Assembly (NCBI RefSeq): GCF_000503775.1
Contig: NZ_KI629785.1
Coordinates: 434,001 to 498,000, forward strand
Source of the DNA: Brevibacillus panacihumi W25
GTDB taxonomy: Bacteria > Bacillota > Bacilli > Brevibacillales > Brevibacillaceae
Reading direction: 5' to 3'
Length of the DNA stretch: 64,000 bases
Shown: positions 11,156 to 19,668 of the stretch, piece after piece
Numbering within the stretch: position 1 is the stretch's first letter
How the letters are laid out: every line of letters starts with the position of its first letter
Notes under the pieces: generated by a model
The model's database searches: none
What the model was told of the DNA's origin: nothing
The model's input: only the letters and a program-made list of their open reading frames with translations
Made by a program: the position numbers and the translations under genes

Positions 11156-11189
11156 AAAAAGAACCCTCGACTCAAACGTTCGAGGGTTC
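11156..11189 (-). terminator. Terminator of the amine-utilisation operon
   Basis: GAACCCTCGA and TCGAGGGTTC form a perfect 10-bp stem with a 9-base loop, followed on the minus strand by TTTTTCG. It lies 24 bp past the permease stop. Confidence 0.85.
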
Positions 11190-11212
11190 CTACTGAGGGC
11201 TGCTTCCGCCTT

Positions 11213-12610
11213 TTACAGGTCTCGCATGGTGGGCGGCACTTCCCTGTATCCTTTTGACTTCACGGCGCCCAGGATGATCCCCGCTGCAAGCCAGCTTCCA
11301 CCAACGACATAAGTCATGGTATCGAAACCTGACCAAACGAAGAAAATGATGGAAAAACCTAGCAAGGGAAGCAGGCCGTATAGCAGAAGACCTTTGGGAT
11401 CCCGCTGTTTTTTCTTGAAAATAAAGTAGATGATGACGGTCAGATTCAGCATCATAAAGGAGGTTAACGCTCCGAAGTTGACCAGCTTAATGATCGTTTC
11501 AATGGAGACGAATAAGGCAACAAAGAATGAGACTATTCCGACAAAAATCGTTGCGTTGAAAGGCGTTTTGTAGACTGGATGTATTTTTCCCAAAATTCCG
11601 GCAAACGGCAGCAGATTATCCCTGCTCATCGAGTAGATGATGCGGGCGATTGCCGATTGAATCGCCAATGCATTCGCAATCCCCACGGCAGCTACAGCGA
11701 TGATGATAAACAGGTAGTAGAGAAGATCCCCGCCGACCTCTCTGGCAATATCGAAGTACGCCATATCCGGATCAAGGTCTTGATAATTTGGATGTGCCAG
11801 TGACGCCAGATAGGTTTGCACCATGAAGATCATCCCGATGGCCACTAAGGAAAATACCGTCGCTCGACCGACCGTTTTTCGCGGCTCTTTCACTTCCTCG
11901 GACAACGTACTGATGACATCGAAACCTAGAAATCCGAGTACTGCGATCGAAGCGGCACTTGCCAGAAATTCGAGGTTCACTTTGTCTGGTTGAATCAGCG
12001 GAGCTAATGAGAAACCACCCATCCCATTGCCGTCCACAAAGACAAACTTGATCGTGCAGGCGATGAATACCGCTAACACGGAGAGTTCCATGATGAGAAA
12101 TACCAGGTTCGTGCGAGCTGTCAGGGAGATCCCTCTCGCATTGATGAAGGTATTGATGAAAAGGAACAACAGGATCAGCAGATAGGTCGGGATTGCTGGA
12201 AAAATGCTGTTCAGCCACATCGCTGAAAAGGACGCCAAGAGCGCTGGGCCCATAATGTAATCGACCGCGATCAGCCAGCCTGTCGCAAACCCTACATGCG
12301 GGTTCAGTCCCCTCTGTACATAGGAATATACGGAGCCCGCAATGGGAAACTCCTTGCTCATTTGGCTGTAGCTGAGTGCTGTAAATACCATGGCCACGAT
12401 CCCGACCAGGTAGACGAGCGGCACCATGCCTGAGCTTTCGTGCGCCAGCATGCCATAAACCTGGATAGGCGCGATCGGGAGCATCGTGATCAACCCGTAG
12501 ACAACGAGATCTTTCATGGTCAAGGCACGTTTCAGTTCCTGTTTGTAGCCGAGGTTGGTCAATGCAGATCCATTCTCATTCAAGCCTGTCTGTACTTTCA
12601 TGTCACCCAA
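11213..12610 (-). CDS. APC-family amine/amino-acid permease
   Basis: A permease of 465 residues with about 12 membrane segments, in the APC superfamily near the putrescine importers PuuP/PlaP. Seen are the TM1 motif MLPIAPIQVYGMLAHESSGM, the TM2 region with SYSQMSKEFPIAGSVYSYVQ, and the TM6 region GFDVISTLSEEVKEPRK, all typical of the group. It is the last gene of the operon running from 17480. It presumably imports the nitrogen compound that the enzymes degrade. The start is a TTG at 12610 six bases after GGGGGG; an ATG three codons later is an alternative. Putrescine is one candidate substrate; an amino alcohol is another. Neither is proven by the sequence. Confidence 0.88.
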   Translation of the reverse strand: MGDMKVQTGLNENGSALTNLGYKQELKRALTMKDLVVYGLITMLPIAPIQVYGMLAHESSGMVPLVYLVGIVAMVFTALSYSQMSKEFPIAGSVYSYVQRGLNPHVGFATGWLIAVDYIMGPALLASFSAMWLNSIFPAIPTYLLILLFLFINTFINARGISLTARTNLVFLIMELSVLAVFIACTIKFVFVDGNGMGGFSLAPLIQPDKVNLEFLASAASIAVLGFLGFDVISTLSEEVKEPRKTVGRATVFSLVAIGMIFMVQTYLASLAHPNYQDLDPDMAYFDIAREVGGDLLYYLFIIIAVAAVGIANALAIQSAIARIIYSMSRDNLLPFAGILGKIHPVYKTPFNATIFVGIVSFFVALFVSIETIIKLVNFGALTSFMMLNLTVIIYFIFKKKQRDPKGLLLYGLLPLLGFSIIFFVWSGFDTMTYVVGGSWLAAGIILGAVKSKGYREVPPTMRDL

Positions 12611-12662
12611 GCTAATCCCCCCGATTTATATGGATGTTGAATCTTCGAAGAGGTGTGACCCC

Positions 12663-14114
12663 TCACTCGAAAGTGAGGGCCACGTATTTCAGTTCCGTAA
12701 ATTCTTCGACGCCTTGTTTTCCTCCGACACGTCCGATTCCACTCGCCTTCACGCCCCCAAAAGGCGCTTGCGGATATGCGAGAGAGGTCCCGTTGATCGC
12801 CATGTTTCCTACCTCGAGCCCCGCGATCATGCGGAACATTCTGGCGGCGTCCCGCGTAAAGACGTAGCCAGCCAGCCCATACGGCGTGTTGTTGCTGCGT
12901 TCAAGCACCTCCGTCTCATCCTCGAAGGTAAGAACCGGGGCTACTGGCCCAAAGATCTCTTCCTTGGTCAGCTCCATGTCATGTGTCACCTCGTCCAGAA
13001 GAGTGGGCGCAAAAAACAATCCATTCCCGAGTCCGTTTTCTGTAAGTCGGCGACCGCCTGTCAGCACCTTTGCCCCTTTTTCCACGGCATCCGCTACCAG
13101 ACGCTCCACCTTGGCCAAGTAGGATGGATCGATCATGGCTCCCACCTGGCTGTCTGGCGCTAATCCCGGGGCCACTTGCAGTCGGCTGATTCGCTCCGCC
13201 AGCTTGTCCACCAATTCCTGATGGATCTTTTTGTGGGCATAGATGAGGTTGATCCCGTTGCACACTTGCCCGGCATTTTCAAATTTATTGCTGACGATTT
13301 TCTCCGCTGCCGCGTCCAGATCAGCATCCGGGAAGACGATGACCGGAGAGTTTCCACCCAATTCCAAGGTCAATCGCTTCACGTGATCAGCAGCCTGTCT
13401 CATCAGGATTTTGCCTACTTCCGTGGAACCCGTGAACGAAATTTTGCGCACTCTTGGGTCTGCTGATAGCATGTTGCCGATGGCAGCCGGTTCGCCCGTT
13501 ACCAGATTTGCGACACCCTGAGGGATGCCTGTCTCCATCAGGTGACGGAACAAAGCAATAGCGATACAAGGAGTCTGCTCTGCAGGCTTCAGCACAATGG
13601 TACATCCTGCCACCAATGCCGGAGCCACCTTTTGCGCCAAGATCGCCGCCGGGAAATTGGCAGGCGTGATGAGACCGGCTACACCTACCGCTTCCCGAAA
13701 GACCATCAGCTTTTGTCCTGGATTCGATGCCGGGATGATCTCTCCCGCCAGCCGCTGTCCTTCTTCCGCATTGTAGCGAATCATGTACGCGGTTCCCGCT
13801 ATTTCGCCCCGTGCCTCAGCGAGCGGTTTCCCTTGCTCGCTCGACAGGAGCAAAGCCAGCTCCTCATGATGGGCCAAAATCCGGTCTGCCCAGTCCAGCA
13901 GGTATCCAGCCCGATCCCCTGCTGTCCGCTTGGACCATTCCGGAAATGCCCGGTAGGCGGCGTCGATCGCTTGCTTCGTCTCCCTTTCTCCTCCATTCGG
14001 AACATAGGCCAGGACTGCTCCTGTCGCCGGGTTGTATACTTCGAAGGTCTCCTGCAAAGTGACTTGCTCTCCGTCAATCCACATGTGGTTCCATTCCATG
14101 CTCTTCTCTTTCAT
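12663..14114 (-). CDS. NAD(P)-dependent aldehyde dehydrogenase
   Basis: About 483 residues of the succinate-semialdehyde / gamma-glutamyl-aminoaldehyde dehydrogenase type (GabD/PuuC group). The fold markers are FPAAILAQKVAPALVAGC, then ISFTGSTEVGK for the cofactor loop, LELGGNSPVIV with the catalytic base Glu, and GQVCNG with the catalytic Cys. It oxidises an aldehyde to an acid. In this operon the likely substrate is the aldehyde of a gamma-glutamylated amine (inferred). The ATG at 14114 follows GTGGAG by eight bases and gives the usual family length; the GTG at 14162 would add 16 atypical residues. Confidence 0.9.
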   Translation of the reverse strand: MKEKSMEWNHMWIDGEQVTLQETFEVYNPATGAVLAYVPNGGERETKQAIDAAYRAFPEWSKRTAGDRAGYLLDWADRILAHHEELALLLSSEQGKPLAEARGEIAGTAYMIRYNAEEGQRLAGEIIPASNPGQKLMVFREAVGVAGLITPANFPAAILAQKVAPALVAGCTIVLKPAEQTPCIAIALFRHLMETGIPQGVANLVTGEPAAIGNMLSADPRVRKISFTGSTEVGKILMRQAADHVKRLTLELGGNSPVIVFPDADLDAAAEKIVSNKFENAGQVCNGINLIYAHKKIHQELVDKLAERISRLQVAPGLAPDSQVGAMIDPSYLAKVERLVADAVEKGAKVLTGGRRLTENGLGNGLFFAPTLLDEVTHDMELTKEEIFGPVAPVLTFEDETEVLERSNNTPYGLAGYVFTRDAARMFRMIAGLEVGNMAINGTSLAYPQAPFGGVKASGIGRVGGKQGVEEFTELKYVALTFE

Positions 14115-14191
14115 CTGTCGTGCTCCACTCCTTTCACATCCTGCTCTGCCCGCTTCCGACACCGCCTTTATGACGGGTCCTATCAGCTAGC

Positions 14192-15550
14192 TTAGATAAA
14201 CTCGAAGTATTTTTTCCGCTCCCAATCCGTCACTTCCGCGAAATAATCGTTCAGTTCATTGCGGGCCGCTGTCAGATAATGCTCCACCACTTCATTGCCC
14301 AACAACTGCCGCACGATTTCACTTCGATCCAATTGCGTAATCGCTTCCACAAGATTGGAAGGAAGGCGCTCTACATCGGGATTGCTGGAGGGCTCTCCAC
14401 GGGTAGGGGCGGCGATGTCTATGCGATTTTTGATGCCGTACAGACCGGATGCCAGCATAGCGGCAAGCACCAGATAGTGATTGACATCTGCGCCTGGAAT
14501 CCGGTTTTCAATCCGGCACGACTTCCCTTTGCCATCGGTGCGAAACGAAGTGAAGCGGTTGTCTTCGCCCCATGTCAAGGTGTTGGGAGCCCCGCCGCCA
14601 TTGGCAAGCCGCTTGTACGAATTGATGTACGGCGCGTAGAAGAGCATCATGGCTGGAGAAAGCGCCAGCATGCCGCCGAGGAAAAAGCGGCCTGTCTCGG
14701 AAAGTCCATACGTGCCGGCCGGATCGTAAAATAGATTGTTGCCGTTTGGATCCCACAGGCTGATATGGGTATGTCCGCTGCTGCCTGGCTCATCCGTGTC
14801 AGGCTTGGCCATAAACGTCGCCATCAGCTTGTTCATAACTGCGATTTCCTTGATGCCGTTCTTGTAAACGGCTGTACGATCCGCCATCTCCAGCGCTTCG
14901 GCATACCGGACATTCAGCTCGACCTGTCCCTTGCCGTATTCGCCCTTGATCGCCTCCAACGGTACGCCTGCTCCCTCCAAATGGCGAGACAACTGCGAGA
15001 GAAACCAGTCATCCACATTTAAGCGAAAGATGGAATAATCGACCGGATAGGAGAACAGCGGCTTCAGATCAATAAAATTCTTTTCACGAATGCTATCGCT
15101 CGTCTCCTGATACAAGTAGAACTCCATCTCGGACGCAGCATTGACTTTATATCCCTTGGCGGAGGCTTTGTTCAACTGCCGTTTCAAAATATTGCGCGGT
15201 GCGATTGACACTTCCGACCCGTCCTTGTTGTACAGATCGCCCAGCACCAGCGCAGTCCGTTCAATCCAGGGGTAGCGACGCAAGGTGGTCAGATCGGGAA
15301 CGACCAGCATGTCGTGCAACCCGCTATCCAGATTGCAAAACTCATAATTTTCCGCGTATTTCAGGCTGGCATCCCAAATGAAGTTAATGGCGCACGTGTG
15401 AATGCCGTCCTTGGCGTCATCCAGAAAGTAGCGGGCAGGCACTTTTTTTCCAAACAGCTTGCCCTGCATGTCGACGCCCGCAATCGTTACCGTTTCGATT
15501 TCTCCACTGGCCACCAGCTCTGCCAATTGCGCTAGATCAATCTTGCCCAC
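14192..15550 (-). CDS. Glutamine-synthetase-like gamma-glutamyl-amine ligase
   Basis: About 452 residues of the glutamine synthetase superfamily, nearer to PuuA/FluG/GlnA4-type ligases than to true GlnA. The catalytic domain shows EMEFYLYQE (metal-binding Glu), GQVELNVRYA, SGHTHISLWD (ATP and metal site) and RIENRIPGADVNHYLVLAA. An N-terminal beta-grasp-like part begins after the GTG start. Such enzymes use ATP to join glutamate to an amine, giving a gamma-glutamyl amide. The neighbours (SDR, aldehyde dehydrogenase, M20 amidase, amine permease) fit a gamma-glutamylated pathway and not nitrogen assimilation. GTG at 15550 has GAGGGGGGAAGG upstream; a TTG at 15586 would overlap the SDR gene and lacks a site. 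Confidence 0.85.
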   Translation of the reverse strand: MGKIDLAQLAELVASGEIETVTIAGVDMQGKLFGKKVPARYFLDDAKDGIHTCAINFIWDASLKYAENYEFCNLDSGLHDMLVVPDLTTLRRYPWIERTALVLGDLYNKDGSEVSIAPRNILKRQLNKASAKGYKVNAASEMEFYLYQETSDSIREKNFIDLKPLFSYPVDYSIFRLNVDDWFLSQLSRHLEGAGVPLEAIKGEYGKGQVELNVRYAEALEMADRTAVYKNGIKEIAVMNKLMATFMAKPDTDEPGSSGHTHISLWDPNGNNLFYDPAGTYGLSETGRFFLGGMLALSPAMMLFYAPYINSYKRLANGGGAPNTLTWGEDNRFTSFRTDGKGKSCRIENRIPGADVNHYLVLAAMLASGLYGIKNRIDIAAPTRGEPSSNPDVERLPSNLVEAITQLDRSEIVRQLLGNEVVEHYLTAARNELNDYFAEVTDWERKKYFEFI

Positions 15551-15570
15551 TTGCCTTCCCCCCTCTCTCC

Positions 15571-16332
15571 TTAGTGAATAGTCCAACCGCCATCTACGAC
15601 AAGCGTGCTGCCCGTAATGTACTCCGACTCGTCGTACGAGAGAAAGACTACGGCATTGGCTACATCAGCCGGTTTTCCAACTCGACCTGCGGGCACACGT
15701 TCCAGAACCCACTCTTTGACCTCAGGATTTTCCAAGCCTTTTTGTGTAAATGGCGTTTCCACTACACCAGGAGCCACCGCATTTACTGTAATGCCATGGG
15801 AAGCAAGCTCCAGCGCGATCGCTTTGGTCAGCATGAACAATCCACCCTTGGACGAGTTGTAATGCGGCTGGCAATGACCGCTGCTGGAAACTACGCGATG
15901 CGCTTCAACCGAAGTAATATTGATAATTCTGCCGCCACGGCCCGCCTTGATCATTTCCTTGGCTGCTGCCTGGGAGCAGAGGAATGGCGCTTTCAGATTG
16001 ACGTTGTGGACGCGGTCCCACTCCTCTACGCCAAGCTCGAGAAATGGCGTAAAAGCGACGATACCGGCATTGTTCACGAGAATATCGAGTTGACCGAATT
16101 CCTGTACCGTTTGCGACACCATTTTTTCTACGTCTGCCGGATTGGTAACATCTACCTTGATTACCATCCCTTTGCTTCCCGCCGGCGCCATCGCGATGGT
16201 TTCATTGGCTCCCGATTCATTGATGTCTGCAACAACGACGGTTGCCCCCTCTTCGAAGTAGCGCAATGCGATAGCTCGTCCATTACCGGATCCGGCTCCT
16301 GTTACGATAACCACTTTGTTTTGCAATTTCAT
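15571..16332 (-). CDS. Short-chain dehydrogenase/reductase (SDR)
   Basis: A 253-residue classical SDR. It has the cofactor loop TGAGSGNGRAIA near residue 11, an Asp after the second strand (VVADI) that favours NAD over NADP, NNAGIVAF, the catalytic Ser in NITSVEAH, and the YxxxK pair as HYNSSKGGL. The C-terminus ends ITGSTLVVDGGWT. SDRs of this type interconvert alcohols and ketones or aldehydes. Inside the gamma-glutamylation operon it could oxidise the hydroxyl of a gamma-glutamyl amino alcohol, feeding the aldehyde dehydrogenase; this is inference. Its ATG overlaps the stop of the M20 gene by four bases, so translation is probably coupled. Confidence 0.9.
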   Translation of the reverse strand: MKLQNKVVIVTGAGSGNGRAIALRYFEEGATVVVADINESGANETIAMAPAGSKGMVIKVDVTNPADVEKMVSQTVQEFGQLDILVNNAGIVAFTPFLELGVEEWDRVHNVNLKAPFLCSQAAAKEMIKAGRGGRIINITSVEAHRVVSSSGHCQPHYNSSKGGLFMLTKAIALELASHGITVNAVAPGVVETPFTQKGLENPEVKEWVLERVPAGRVGKPADVANAVVFLSYDESEYITGSTLVVDGGWTIH

Positions 16333-17480
16333 TTGACATCTTCCCTTCCCTGAATGGATTGTACGAATTTTTCGATGATTTTTTGATAAGTGAATAACGA
16401 TGGAATTTCTACATATTCATCCGGACCATGATGATTGGCTCCAATTGGTCCGAACTCGACTGCCGGTATTCCATGGGCGGCGAAAAAGCGCGTGTCGGCA
16501 GAGCCGTCTTGGCCAAACATCCTTACCGGCATAGCCGCCACTGTACTCGTCGAATGACGCAGCAGCCGAACGTAAGGGTCATCTGCGTAGGTTAGAACGG
16601 GAGCGCCCTCCTGGAGTACGCTTACGTCAGCCTCCGGGACAGCCCGCCGAATATCGGAAAGAATCTCATCCCGATCCTGTCCAGGCAGGTAGCGAATATC
16701 CAGACAGAACGAGCATGCATCAGGCACTTGATTGAGGGCCCCTCCCGCTTCGATCCGCGCGATATTGAAGGACGGACGATCATAGAAAGCTGAGCTTTGT
16801 TTCAAGAAATCGAGCCCTTCGATCTTTCGGTATACGTCCATAGCACAGAGAATTGCATTCTTTCCGAGCCAGGGACGGCTTCCGTGAGCGGCGACACCTG
16901 TCACTTCCACCTTCAGTTGCAATACGCCTTTGGCTTGCACGGCGATGTGCAAGTTCGTAGGTTCTCCGCAAATGACGAAATCGCCAAGAAAGCCATTTTG
17001 CGCCAAGAAGCCTGTGCCCTTCATTCCTCCCGTCTCTTCATCCGGGACCAGCTGCAAGAGAACATGGCAATCAAGCTCTTCCTCACGCAGCTCCACCATC
17101 GCCATCATCATGGCGGCCACTGCGCCTAGCATATCGTAGCTGCCTCGCGCATACAGCCTGTCCTCGACGATCTTTGGTTCGAACAAATGAGGCTCCCCCG
17201 GCACGACATCGAGATGTCCATTCAACACGACAGTAGGCTTTCCTGGTTTGTGTGCACCCTTGCTCGCCACTACGCTCTTCAGTCCCTGATTCATCAGAAC
17301 CTCCGTCTTGAGGCCATGACGGTTCAGCCACTCCGCACAGAATGTCGCCGATTGATTGATCGCAGTCGCAGAAGTGGCTTCCATTCGAATCAGGTCGCAC
17401 AGCAATGCAAGCAACGGCTTCTCCATCCCTACCACATCCTTTTTGCCATTTCTTTCTTTGTTCTCTATAGGGGGCGGCAT
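16329..17480 (-). CDS. M20-family amidohydrolase (ArgE/DapE type)
   Basis: About 383 residues of the M20 metallopeptidase family. Metal and catalytic parts are NGHLDVVPGE (His and Asp), YDMLGA, PDEETGG (general-base Glu), ICGEPTN, and the C-terminal HHGPDEYV. A dimerisation insert (GVAAHGSRPW) sits between. M20 enzymes cleave N-acyl or peptide amides such as N-acetylornithine or succinyl-diaminopimelate. Here it is the first gene after the sigma-54 promoter and could split a gamma-glutamyl amide at the end of the pathway, in place of a PuuD-type peptidase. The ATG at 17480 follows AGGAGGGG; the ATG at 17426 has a poorer site. Confidence 0.85.
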   Translation of the reverse strand: MPPPIENKERNGKKDVVGMEKPLLALLCDLIRMEATSATAINQSATFCAEWLNRHGLKTEVLMNQGLKSVVASKGAHKPGKPTVVLNGHLDVVPGEPHLFEPKIVEDRLYARGSYDMLGAVAAMMMAMVELREEELDCHVLLQLVPDEETGGMKGTGFLAQNGFLGDFVICGEPTNLHIAVQAKGVLQLKVEVTGVAAHGSRPWLGKNAILCAMDVYRKIEGLDFLKQSSAFYDRPSFNIARIEAGGALNQVPDACSFCLDIRYLPGQDRDEILSDIRRAVPEADVSVLQEGAPVLTYADDPYVRLLRHSTSTVAAMPVRMFGQDGSADTRFFAAHGIPAVEFGPIGANHHGPDEYVEIPSLFTYQKIIEKFVQSIQGREDVK

Positions 17481-17533
17481 CCTTCCCCTCCTATCCGGAG
17501 AAAATTTAGTAAATCTTCACGCAATTTTTTATT

Positions 17534-17549
17534 TGCAAGTACCATGCCA
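17534..17549 (-). promoter_or_regulatory. Sigma-54 promoter of the five-gene operon
   Basis: On the minus strand TGGCAT-GGTAC-TTGCA matches the sigma-54 consensus TGGCAC-N5-TTGCW with the invariant GG and GC in register. Transcription would start near 17523, about 43 bp before the ATG at 17480. An enhancer-binding activator gene lies immediately upstream, which supports use of this promoter. Confidence 0.85.
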
Positions 17550-17579: not shown

Positions 17580-17589
17580 CACCAAATAA

Positions 17590-17630
17590 AAATGGGATAA
17601 TCGGGCTAACTCCACCTGATCATCCCATTT
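17590..17630 (-). terminator. Terminator of the sigma-54 activator gene
   Basis: AAATGGGAT and ATCCCATTT form a 9-bp stem extended by GATC/AATC, followed on the minus strand by TTTTATTTGG. It isolates the activator transcript from the sigma-54 operon. Confidence 0.75.
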
Positions 17631-17637
17631 CACCCAT

Positions 17638-19668
17638 TTATCCTTGCAAATAGGCACTCCCCTTGCTTGTCAACTTACAACCGGCACGACCAGGAGTAAC
17701 TTCAATCAAGCCAGCTTCACGCAGTTGATCAAGCGTCTTGCGCATATCATTTTCCGTAATCACGTAGCCGCTCTCTCTTGCGCGTCTCACCAGCGCACGT
17801 CTGCCCGTATTTTGCCCACTCACCCGCCCTTGGTGAATCATTTGCAAAATCAAGAGCTCTCTTTTCTCACCTGGCAGCTCCTGCAAATCGAGATGCGGAG
17901 TCCCGCGGTTAGACACTGTATCAGCACTGCCCTGCAAAAACAATGGAATGTCCTCCAGCGTCTCGCATCCTTCATTCATAAACGCGATATACTCCATCGT
18001 ATTTTCCAATTCCCTGACATTCCCCGGCCATGGATACCGCATCAATGCGTCCTTCAACTGATGAACATGGCCCGGATGGGCGCCTCTGCGCTCCAGAAAC
18101 CAAGTCGCCAAATACGGAATATCCTCGGGCCTTTCACGAAGCGGCGGGATATCCAACTGCAAGACCCGCAGACGATAGTACAAATCATCGCGAAATTTCC
18201 CTTCTGCCACTAATTTGGACAAATCCCGATTGGTGGCGGCGATGATTCGGACATCAATCGGAAATAGCCTCGTACCCCCTACTTTCAATACCTCTTTTTG
18301 CTGAATCACGCGCAATAGCCGGCTTTGCAGGCTGGGTGAAATGTCGCCGATCTCGTCCAAAAAGATCGTACCTTTATGGGCTTCCTCAAATAATCCCGGT
18401 TTCCCTCCCTTTTTGGCTCCGGTAAACGCTCCATCTTCGTAGCCAAACAGCTCGCTCTCAAGGAGATTATCTGGCAATGCGCTGCAATTGACTGCAACAA
18501 ATGGATAGTTCGCACGTTTCGACGATTGATGGATCGCGTGAGCAAACAGCTCTTTTCCCGTCCCGCTCTCCCCAAGAATCAGCACATTCAAATCGGTTGA
18601 TGCCATTTTTTTCGCACGCTGTACGATCTGTTTCATTTTCTCGCTCACTGTAACCAATTCGTGAAAGCCGAACTTAGCCACGTGCCCCTTCGGTTGAAAG
18701 CGGAGCTTCAATTCCAGCTCTTCCACCCGCTTCGCCACTTTGAGGGTCAACACGCCTCCCGTCATCCGGCCGTTCGTCACGATGTGCTGATTGTTGAGAA
18801 TGACCTTCTGCTTCTTGATTTGTGTCAGGACATCCTTCCATTCTTCCTCGAACGAAGGACATTCCGCTCCCTCCTGCTTGAGCAAGCGCATGACATCCTG
18901 TGCTTCTTCTGCGGTACAGGAAAAAAATGCTTTGGCCTCTTGGTTGAGCAGCGTAATGCTTCCGTGCTGATCATAGCCAATGACCACGTCCTGAACCATA
19001 TTCAGCGTTTGCTGCAGCATTTTTTTGGCATGAATCAGGCCTTTCATGGTCAATTCCAAACCTTGACTGCGCGATACGATGCTTTCTGCGTATCGGGCCA
19101 GAATGTTGCGGGTTGTGCCGTTCAACAAGTTTAACTGCGTCAGCATATCCACCATGGTCCCCACATCTACAACCCGATCACCAATGTCCACGATCTGGTT
19201 CACATAGTCGGGGACCAGATGACTTTCTCCTGGCGTGATCGCGATGGGAAGCTGTTCGGACAGATCAGCACCTGGATAGTAGGCCACGCACTCGATATGT
19301 CTTGCTCCCAGTTCATACAGAAGAGCGATTGCCTCCTCTGCCGAATCTTTTTCATCATTGACGAGAAGCAATCGAGTCCCTGTAGGAATCGCCATAACAT
19401 TTTCCCAACTGCCGAGGGTCAAGGTCCGGCGGATGACCAGAATCACAGTACCTGGCTTGATCCAGGGAGGAGTATTCCTGAGGAAGATGGTGTGGGTACT
19501 GATTAGCACCATGTCAAAATCGATATCCTGATCTCCCCAGTCCTTGATGGGAATTCCTGAAAAATCTATCCATTGTCCGAATAGTCCATTCAATTGAGCG
19601 ACAATTTCCCCTGCGGTCTCCCGTGAACCGGCAATAATGGCTACTCTCGGCCTTCTTGGTATGTTCAA
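17638..19668 (-). CDS. Sigma-54-dependent transcriptional activator
   Basis: A 676-residue enhancer-binding protein. Residues 1-200 form a Rossmann-like sensory region that I do not recognise. Residues 225-330 look like a PAS domain (VIGYDQHGSITLLNQEAK). The AAA+ domain (about 345-575) has Walker A GESGTGKE, the sigma-54-contacting GAFTGA loop, Walker B GTIFLDEIGD, and the arginine-finger region FRDDLYYRL. The C-terminal 80 residues are not a Fis-type helix-turn-helix but look like a winged helix (MRKTLDQLREAGLIEVTPGR). It very likely drives the promoter at 17534-17549 in response to the operon's substrate. The start is a TTG at 19668 after AGAGGAAG. Confidence 0.92.
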   Translation of the reverse strand: MNIPRRPRVAIIAGSRETAGEIVAQLNGLFGQWIDFSGIPIKDWGDQDIDFDMVLISTHTIFLRNTPPWIKPGTVILVIRRTLTLGSWENVMAIPTGTRLLLVNDEKDSAEEAIALLYELGARHIECVAYYPGADLSEQLPIAITPGESHLVPDYVNQIVDIGDRVVDVGTMVDMLTQLNLLNGTTRNILARYAESIVSRSQGLELTMKGLIHAKKMLQQTLNMVQDVVIGYDQHGSITLLNQEAKAFFSCTAEEAQDVMRLLKQEGAECPSFEEEWKDVLTQIKKQKVILNNQHIVTNGRMTGGVLTLKVAKRVEELELKLRFQPKGHVAKFGFHELVTVSEKMKQIVQRAKKMASTDLNVLILGESGTGKELFAHAIHQSSKRANYPFVAVNCSALPDNLLESELFGYEDGAFTGAKKGGKPGLFEEAHKGTIFLDEIGDISPSLQSRLLRVIQQKEVLKVGGTRLFPIDVRIIAATNRDLSKLVAEGKFRDDLYYRLRVLQLDIPPLRERPEDIPYLATWFLERRGAHPGHVHQLKDALMRYPWPGNVRELENTMEYIAFMNEGCETLEDIPLFLQGSADTVSNRGTPHLDLQELPGEKRELLILQMIHQGRVSGQNTGRRALVRRARESGYVITENDMRKTLDQLREAGLIEVTPGRAGCKLTSKGSAYLQG

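What the first reader, a model, noticed from the sequence alone, without database searches (positions are those of the whole stretch)
11213..17549. Sigma-54 operon that looks like a gamma-glutamylated amino-alcohol (or diamine) pathway
Seen: one sigma-54 promoter followed by an M20 amidohydrolase, an SDR, a glutamine-synthetase-like ligase, an aldehyde dehydrogenase and an APC amine permease, with stop/start overlaps and one terminator at the end. Known: PuuA/IpuC/GlnA4-type ligases protect amines as gamma-glutamyl amides; the Puu route oxidises the amine with an amine oxidase (PuuB) and releases product with a class-I peptidase (PuuD). Neither PuuB nor PuuD is present. Inferred: the SDR would fit oxidation of a hydroxyl group, so ethanolamine or another amino alcohol could be imported, glutamylated, oxidised to aldehyde and acid, then hydrolysed by the M20 enzyme to glutamate and an amino acid such as glycine. 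This combination would be a new arrangement.
Basis: partly seen in the sequence, partly recalled or inferred. Interest (0 to 1): 0.75.

Follow-up and report, generated by a model that had tools for sequence, protein, structure and literature searches.

The report
Glutamate-tagging operon for bulky amino alcohols
This Brevibacillus operon encodes a glutamine-synthetase-like enzyme, two dehydrogenases, an M20 hydrolase and a permease, and it is predicted to let the cell feed on bulky amino alcohols (likely valinol or leucinol, the end groups of some peptide antibiotics) by tagging them with glutamate, which would turn them into amino acids.

Summary
The general idea (gamma-glutamylate an amino alcohol, oxidise it twice, hydrolyse) is supported but not new: it is published for ethanolamine in Streptomyces and Phaeobacter. 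The favoured substrate, ethanolamine, is unlikely. The ligase lies outside the ethanolamine-type ligases in its own clade (100/100), where glycine stands at the GlnA E327 position instead of the Phe, Trp or Tyr of nearly all other amine ligases sampled. The host already has two EutBC pairs; EutB is in 11 of 13 genomes with this ligase type and 0 of 23 with the ethanolamine type (confounded by kinship). In two Paenibacillus-group relatives a leucine dehydrogenase sits inside the operon; in a third, an aminotransferase follows it and phenylacetate and 2-oxoacid dehydrogenase genes flank it. Best reading: a route for branched-chain (valinol/leucinol-type) or other hydrophobic amino alcohols, releasing glutamate plus the amino acid. 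M20 in the hydrolase slot is recurrent (8 of 23 ethanolamine-type Bacilli loci). New variant of a known kind; substrate untested.

The parts
17638..19668 (-). sigma-54-dependent activator; N-terminal ~200 residues without a Pfam match over cut-off
   Evidence: PF00158 3e-71; beside the operon in 15 of 18 window-clade loci; N-terminal stretch has no Pfam family; its model has mean pLDDT 60
17589..17631 (-). hairpin between activator gene and promoter (terminator-like or activator site)
   Evidence: -24.7 kcal/mol, z -4.4; similar stems seen by eye in relatives
17535..17549 (-). sigma-54 -24/-12 promoter TGGCATGGTACTTGC
   Evidence: only exact match in window; a site (8 exact, 4 looser) in 12 of 13 operons
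16329..17480 (-). M20 amidohydrolase, predicted gamma-glutamyl-amino-acid hydrolase
   Evidence: PF01546/PF07687; PDB relatives include DapE and [LysW]-lysine hydrolase 5xoy; present in 17 of 18 window-clade loci, cut by the contig end in L006
15571..16332 (-). SDR, predicted gamma-glutamyl-amino-alcohol dehydrogenase
   Evidence: PF13561; passes NCBIfam's 'glucose 1-dehydrogenase' subfamily cut-off, 256 against 215 bits; 70-99% identical partners in the window-clade loci
14192..15550 (-). GS-like ligase (GTG start at 15550; ORF runs to TTG 15586), predicted gamma-glutamyl-amino-alcohol synthetase
   Evidence: PF00120; below the cut-offs of the GlnA, GlnIII and GGputSyn models; own clade 100/100; Gly at the GlnA E327 position
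12663..14114 (-). aldehyde dehydrogenase (ORF runs to GTG 14162)
   Evidence: PF00171 3e-163; start inferred from the ribosome site
11213..12610 (-). APC-superfamily permease, predicted importer
   Evidence: PF13520; best NCBIfam models are amino-acid transporters, below cut-off; best PDB chains are cationic amino-acid transporters
11159..11191 (-). terminator hairpin followed by T run
   Evidence: -19.4 kcal/mol, z -4.5

Best explanation
This operon likely imports a bulky amino alcohol (most likely valinol or leucinol type), whose amine the glutamine-synthetase-like ligase would join to the gamma-carboxyl of glutamate; the SDR and the aldehyde dehydrogenase are then predicted to oxidise the alcohol to aldehyde and acid, and the M20 enzyme would cut the resulting gamma-glutamyl-amino acid into glutamate and a branched-chain amino acid. 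Tagging would keep the reactive amino aldehyde from leaving or condensing, and the product would carry the free alpha-carboxylate that M20 enzymes of the ArgE/DapE/LysK kind recognise (recalled). The neighbouring activator would switch the operon on through sigma-54. Shown: gene set, order, promoter site and hairpin, clade, residues, neighbours in relatives. Inferred: every reaction, the substrate and the inducer.
For: Gene set and promoter site. The ligase keeps 11 metal, glutamate and ATP columns of GlnA but not Y179 and E327; it is separate from GlnA, PuuA, IpuC and the ethanolamine-type ligases. Gly at the E327 position in 21 of 21 window-clade rows; Phe, Trp or Tyr in the other amine ligases sampled except L107 (Leu); among the 114 of 120 hits that could be parsed, 40 G, 73 F, 1 V. 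Leucine dehydrogenase between ALDH and permease in L120 and L121; for L120 the nearest PDB entries are leucine dehydrogenases, E 4.5e-184, against 2.9e-108 for tryptophan and 2e-63 for phenylalanine dehydrogenase; that of L121 is 74% identical to it. The MFS protein beside it carries an ACT domain of the AHAS small-subunit kind. In L005 an aminotransferase follows the permease. Permease nearer to amino-acid than to ethanolamine permeases. Host has EutBC twice; EutB in 11 of 13 window-type against 0 of 23 ethanolamine-type genomes. [quoted passage not shown]
Against: No reaction was tested. Leucine dehydrogenase is in 2 of 18 loci and not in the window or the Brevibacillus loci, and its only NCBIfam match among non-glutamate models is tryptophan dehydrogenase ScyB, below cut-off. 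The L005 aminotransferase passes the HisC (histidinol-phosphate) cut-off; the 2-oxoacid dehydrogenase genes beyond a divergent Lrp-type gene there are not resolved into branched-chain or pyruvate kind; and paaABCD in front points to an aromatic product. The EutB contrast is confounded by kinship: 23 of 26 genomes of the genus have EutB, and G402 and G719 have this ligase without EutB. Two clade members, L006 and L011, have a different permease, and L011 has no M20 or activator nearby. Glycine for an aromatic residue suggests but does not prove a larger pocket; no structure of the ligase was made; GlnA N264, a glutamate contact, is Pro here. In Paenarthrobacter TC1 the Ipu route is postulated to release alaninol before oxidation (PMC6776027, passages), so the order of steps could differ.
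Confidence: 0.45

Rival explanations
1. Ethanolamine route: gamma-glutamylethanolamide is oxidised to gamma-glutamylglycine and hydrolysed to glutamate and glycine, as proposed for Streptomyces GlnA4 and Phaeobacter; M20 replaces the amidotransferase or formylglutamate-type hydrolase.
For: Same enzyme logic in print (PMC6529630, PMC10132767); an M20 gene is by the ligase in 8 of 23 ethanolamine-type Bacilli loci; G402 and G719 carry the window-type ligase without EutB.
Against: Ligase outside the ethanolamine-type superclade; Gly for Phe/Trp at the E327 position; EutBC twice in the host; amino-acid-type permease; leucine dehydrogenase in two relatives.
Confidence: 0.18
2. Aromatic amino alcohol route: phenylalaninol or tryptophanol is converted to Phe or Trp, then to the oxoacid and phenylacetyl-CoA.
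For: In L005 the operon lies directly behind paaABCD and an aldehyde dehydrogenase, and a HisC-type aminotransferase follows it; PaaA is also in the host genome, elsewhere; the L120 amino-acid dehydrogenase matches the tryptophan dehydrogenase model, below cut-off.
Against: The paa link is seen in 1 of 18 loci; by PDB comparison the L120 dehydrogenase is of the leucine kind.
Confidence: 0.18
3. The amine is not an amino alcohol (diamine, alkylamine or aromatic amine), and the SDR acts on a later or different intermediate.
For: Related ligases take polyamines and anilines (PMC11335346, passages and sections 12-13) and isopropylamine (PMC6776027, passages).
Against: The operon holds no amine oxidase, P450 or dioxygenase gene (families), so an amine without a hydroxyl would lack its oxidising step; the SDR-GS-ALDH set is kept in 18 of 18 loci.
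Confidence: 0.14
4. The ligase is an ordinary or backup glutamine synthetase.
For: PF00120 match.
Against: GlnA Y179 and E327 lost; outside GlnA in the tree; below the GlnA and GlnIII cut-offs; the genome has two other glutamine synthetase genes, one of them placed with E. coli GlnA.
Confidence: 0.03

Closest known systems
Streptomyces GlnA4 ethanolamine cluster (PMC6529630)
   Same: GS-like ligase, SDR and aldehyde dehydrogenase in one cluster with a hydrolase and, in several species, a permease; same predicted chemistry.
   Different: Hydrolase is a glutamine amidotransferase (orf5, Fig. 2 legend) or of the formylglutamate amidohydrolase family (discussion); the words M20 and sigma-54 do not occur in that text. 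A cluster of the same make-up, L050, falls in another ligase clade; GlnA4 itself was not in the tree.
Phaeobacter ethanolamine pathway (PMC10132767) and Ruegeria/Sinorhizobium/Aminobacter clusters
   Same: Ligase, aldehyde dehydrogenase, alcohol dehydrogenase, gamma-glutamylglycine-type hydrolase; an importer in Phaeobacter, Ruegeria B32 and Sinorhizobium.
   Different: In the Ruegeria, Sinorhizobium and Aminobacter records: iron-type alcohol dehydrogenase and N-formylglutamate-type hydrolase; TRAP transporter in Phaeobacter and Ruegeria B32. Ligases of Ruegeria B32 and Sinorhizobium are 39 and 42% identical to ours, with Phe at the E327 position.
IpuC / Ipu pathway
   Same: Gamma-glutamyl tagging that passes through gamma-glutamyl-alaninol (PMC6776027, passages); SDR and amidotransferase genes nearby in TC1.
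   Different: Uses a P450 to make the alcohol; ligase outside both clades (long branch).
Puu pathway (E. coli)
   Same: Ligase, aldehyde dehydrogenase and permease classes.
   Different: No PuuB or PuuD homologue found in the window; ligase 27% identical to PuuA.
LysK, [LysW]-lysine hydrolase (M20)
   Same: M20 enzyme that cuts a gamma-glutamyl to alpha-amino bond (recalled); found by sequence, E 8.5e-12.
   Different: Acts on a carrier protein in lysine or arginine biosynthesis (recalled).

Membership tests
Glutamine synthetase (GlnA) | ammonium-site residues D50, Y179 and flap E327 | tested here: not met
   E, gap and G at these columns, the D50 column being poorly aligned; GlnA model 259 bits against cut-off 429
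Gamma-glutamylputrescine synthetase (PuuA) | NF045547 score over cut-off | tested here: not met
   226 bits against 650
Ethanolamine-type ligase clade (Phaeobacter/Ruegeria, GlnA4-like and Bacilli clusters) | place inside that clade | tested here: not met
   separate 21-row clade 100/100; the ethanolamine-type superclade of 31 rows is 98/98; GlnA4 itself not in the tree
GS-like amine ligases in general (GoaS) | metal, glutamate and ATP residues kept, ammonium residues lost | tested here: met
   11 of 12 such GlnA columns kept (N264 is Pro), Y179 and E327 lost; criterion from PMC6529630 and PMC11335346
GS-like amine ligases in general (GoaS) | ligase activity with an organic amine | not testable with these tools
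   needs purified protein
Gamma-glutamyl amino-alcohol pathway | ligase, alcohol dehydrogenase, aldehyde dehydrogenase, hydrolase and importer genes in one cluster | tested here: met
   core kept in relatives; the activities are predicted
Gamma-glutamyl ethanolamine pathway | ethanolamine as substrate | not testable with these tools
   indirect evidence is against it
Puu pathway | PuuB amine oxidase and PuuD hydrolase | tested here: not met
   no PuuB or PuuD match in the window at E 1e-15
Sigma-54-dependent operon | -24/-12 site and adjacent activator | tested here: met
   transcription itself untested
M20 hydrolase | M20 catalytic and dimerisation domains | tested here: met
   PF01546 and PF07687 over cut-off

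The most novel reading that the evidence does not exclude
A dedicated, inducible catabolic route for the hydrophobic amino alcohols that cap non-ribosomal antibiotics (valinol of Brevibacillus lipopeptides; leucinol, valinol and phenylalaninol of peptaibols): a soil bacterium eats the end group of its own or its neighbours' peptide antibiotics through gamma-glutamyl amino aldehydes, with an M20 enzyme releasing the amino acid and leucine dehydrogenase feeding it onward.
Probability: 0.33. Interest if true: 0.75.

Novelty: new variant of a known kind. Interest (0 to 1): 0.57.

Why it matters
The listings of my paper searches show no described bacterial pathway for valinol, leucinol or phenylalaninol (open-licence PMC only; two searches listed 12 of 15 and 10 of 41 papers). 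If the reading holds, it gives a fate to the amino-alcohol end groups of peptaibols and Brevibacillus lipopeptides, extends gamma-glutamyl tagging from ethanolamine to chiral amino alcohols, supplies enzymes that could make amino acids from amino alcohols, and provides a one-residue marker (Gly at the E327 position) that separates two ligase groups in Bacillota whose members, where a source names them, are mostly called just 'glutamine synthetase (family protein)'.

Tried and rejected
Considered and rejected: GlnA (residues, tree); Puu-type diamine route (no PuuB or PuuD found); uniqueness of the arrangement (prior art found); uniqueness of M20 in the hydrolase slot (8 of 23 ethanolamine-type Bacilli loci).

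Led nowhere: the activator's N-terminal stretch has no Pfam family, its model has mean pLDDT 60 and the fold search was off, so the inducer class is unknown. The promoter/terminator scan listed neither the sigma-54 site nor the end hairpin. Paper searches on amino-alcohol catabolism gave no pathway. A search for LysK literature gave no paper that I read, so the LysK chemistry is recalled.

Rows dropped and limits: the own-genome synthetase row L081 was mis-parsed by my script and left out of the tree. Six of 120 hits could not be parsed at the E327 position; an earlier regex gave wrong letters there and was replaced. The tree holds 65 rows that I chose. Of 27 ethanolamine-type genomes I examined 23 (G144, G243, G248 and G264 left out); 20 of the 23 ligases were placed by the tree and 3 (G334, G219, G190) by best panel match and gene order. 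Hydrolase-slot counts come from a BLAST panel at E 1e-10 on flanks of limited length (7.5 to 17.4 kb loci), so other hydrolase kinds would be missed. Loci L104, L105 and L111 repeat L003, L006 and L014 and were not counted among the 18. On re-checking I lowered the best reading from 0.48 to 0.45 and the novel case from 0.35 to 0.33, because the oxoacid dehydrogenase genes in L005 are not shown to be of the branched-chain kind and its aminotransferase passes the HisC cut-off.
Full report
1. What is there. On the - strand, window 19668 to 11159 holds a sigma-54 activator gene, a hairpin, a -24/-12 promoter site, M20 hydrolase, SDR, GS-like ligase, aldehyde dehydrogenase, APC permease and a terminator hairpin. 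The genome is close to Brevibacillus panacihumi: the ligase is 97-98% identical to that of L001. The genome holds two other glutamine synthetase genes, one of which groups with E. coli GlnA.

2. Conservation. Among 18 distinct loci of the same ligase clade (window included), the set SDR, GS, ALDH is kept in 18 (in L006 a permease gene lies between SDR and GS), M20 in 17 (not L011; cut by the contig end in L006), the activator in 15 and a permease like ours in 16 (not L006 and L011). Twelve of 13 operons have a -24/-12 site before M20, 8 exact and 4 looser; the exception, L005, sits directly behind paaABCD and an aldehyde dehydrogenase. A chemoreceptor gene lies beside the operon in 6 of 18. 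Of 38 ligase relatives that I took from the 120 listed, 17 have the same longest-contig length as one of the 120 listed M20 relatives, a rough sign of linkage. Distribution is patchy: 6 of 26 genomes of the genus, 1 of 104 of the L005 family and 3 of 392 of its order, 2 of 261 of the L011 order.

3. The ligase looks like an amine ligase but not of the ethanolamine group. Of 12 GlnA columns for metal, glutamate and ATP, 11 are kept and N264 is Pro; Y179 and E327 are lost, and the D50 column aligns poorly (a similar test was used for GlnA4 in PMC6529630). In a 65-row tree the window ligase sits in a 21-row clade (100/100), sister to 8 rows with Phe at the E327 position; the ethanolamine-type ligases (Ruegeria, Sinorhizobium, actinobacterial and Bacilli clusters) form a separate 31-row group (98/98), with IpuC, PuuA, L107 and GlnA outside. 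Long branches (PuuA, L107, IpuC) make the outer order unsure. At the E327 position 21 of 21 window-clade rows have Gly; the other amine ligases sampled have Phe, Trp or Tyr, except L107 with Leu. Of 120 listed hits, 114 could be read: 40 Gly, 73 Phe, 1 Val. I take this as a wider amine pocket; that is inference.

4. Ethanolamine is probably not the substrate. The host has EutB and EutC over cut-off with an EutA-like gene (below cut-off) at one locus, and EutB and EutC at another. EutB is found in 11 of 13 genomes with the window-type ligase and 0 of 23 with the ethanolamine type (Fisher p 1.3e-7, not corrected for kinship). In the genus 23 of 26 have EutB; the two genomes with an ethanolamine-type ligase are among the three that lack it. 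So co-occurrence with Eut in Brevibacillus is mostly background; the telling part is that the ethanolamine-type ligase was seen only where EutB is missing. Against this, G402 and G719 have the window-type ligase and no EutB. The permease is nearer to amino-acid than to ethanolamine permeases.

5. What the product may be. In two Paenibacillus-group genomes (L120, L121) the operon reads sigma-54 factor, activator, M20, SDR, ligase, ALDH, ACT-domain MFS protein, leucine dehydrogenase, permease, second SDR. The L120 dehydrogenase matches solved leucine dehydrogenases far better than tryptophan or phenylalanine dehydrogenases, although its best NCBIfam model is tryptophan dehydrogenase, below cut-off. 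In L005 an aminotransferase follows the permease; it passes the HisC cut-off. Beyond a divergent Lrp-type gene lie E1, E2 and E3-like genes of a 2-oxoacid dehydrogenase of unresolved kind. In L126 an amidase, a further M20 and an alpha/beta hydrolase follow. A branched-chain or other hydrophobic amino acid as the released product explains the leucine dehydrogenase better than glycine does.

6. Mechanism. Import (APC), gamma-glutamylation (ligase, ATP, glutamate), alcohol to aldehyde (SDR), aldehyde to acid (ALDH), hydrolysis of gamma-glutamyl-amino acid (M20). None of these steps was tested. M20 enzymes of the ArgE/DapE kind cut acyl-NH-CHR-COO- bonds (recalled), which fits a gamma-glutamyl-amino acid better than a gamma-glutamyl-amine; the LysK relative in the PDB list is the recalled precedent for a gamma-glutamyl bond.

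7. Known and new. The chemistry is published for ethanolamine: Streptomyces GlnA4 cluster with SDR, ALDH and amidotransferase (PMC6529630, passages); Phaeobacter cluster (PMC10132767, passages). Gamma-glutamyl-alaninol occurs in the Ipu route (PMC6776027, passages). By BLAST panel I found M20 by the ligase in 8 of 23 ethanolamine-type Bacilli loci (5 at 24-27%, 3 at 44% identity to ours), an amidotransferase in 6 and neither in 9. New here, as far as my searches go: the separate ligase clade with its glycine, the sigma-54 unit, and the leucine-dehydrogenase link that points to hydrophobic amino alcohols. [quoted passage not shown] peptaibols end in amino alcohols such as leucinol, phenylalaninol or valinol (PMC12734927, passages).

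8. Verdict. Likelihood of the general gamma-glutamyl amino-alcohol scheme about 0.8; of a hydrophobic amino alcohol as the main substrate (aliphatic or aromatic) about 0.63; of the branched-chain version about 0.45.

Noticed in passing
G000:C5:742399-743694 and G000:C1:256957-258255 (loci L122, L123): Two ethanolamine ammonia-lyase loci in the host genome, one with an EutA-like gene; a gene resembling the window's activator (45%) lies near the EutBC pair in L123.
   Followed up: partly
L120:13578-14906 and L121:2072-3415: A sigma-54 factor gene stands directly before the activator gene, so promoter factor, activator and operon lie together.
   Followed up: no
L002, L004, L009, L012, L014 (divergent from the activator) and L120: A chemoreceptor gene beside the operon, suggesting taxis towards the substrate.
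   Followed up: no
L004 and L007 (B. reuszeri DSM 9887), L008 and L009 (NIT02), L010 and L012: Two paralogous operons in one genome: activator before M20 in one, after the permease in the other.
   Followed up: no
Described only.
   Followed up: no
window 17589-17631 and the same place in relatives: A hairpin between activator gene and promoter, with similar stems but different letters in the second operon type; terminator or activator site.
   Followed up: partly
L084, L085, L086, L096, L099, L101, L108, L109, L110: Ethanolamine-type loci in which the panel found no M20, amidotransferase, PuuD or formylglutamate-type hydrolase in the flanks; their hydrolase is unknown.
   Followed up: no
   Followed up: no
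L048:4493-5974 and L054:4176-5552: Ligase clusters in Allomeiothermus and Rhizobium that carry an aminotransferase, possibly further substrate variants.
   Followed up: no
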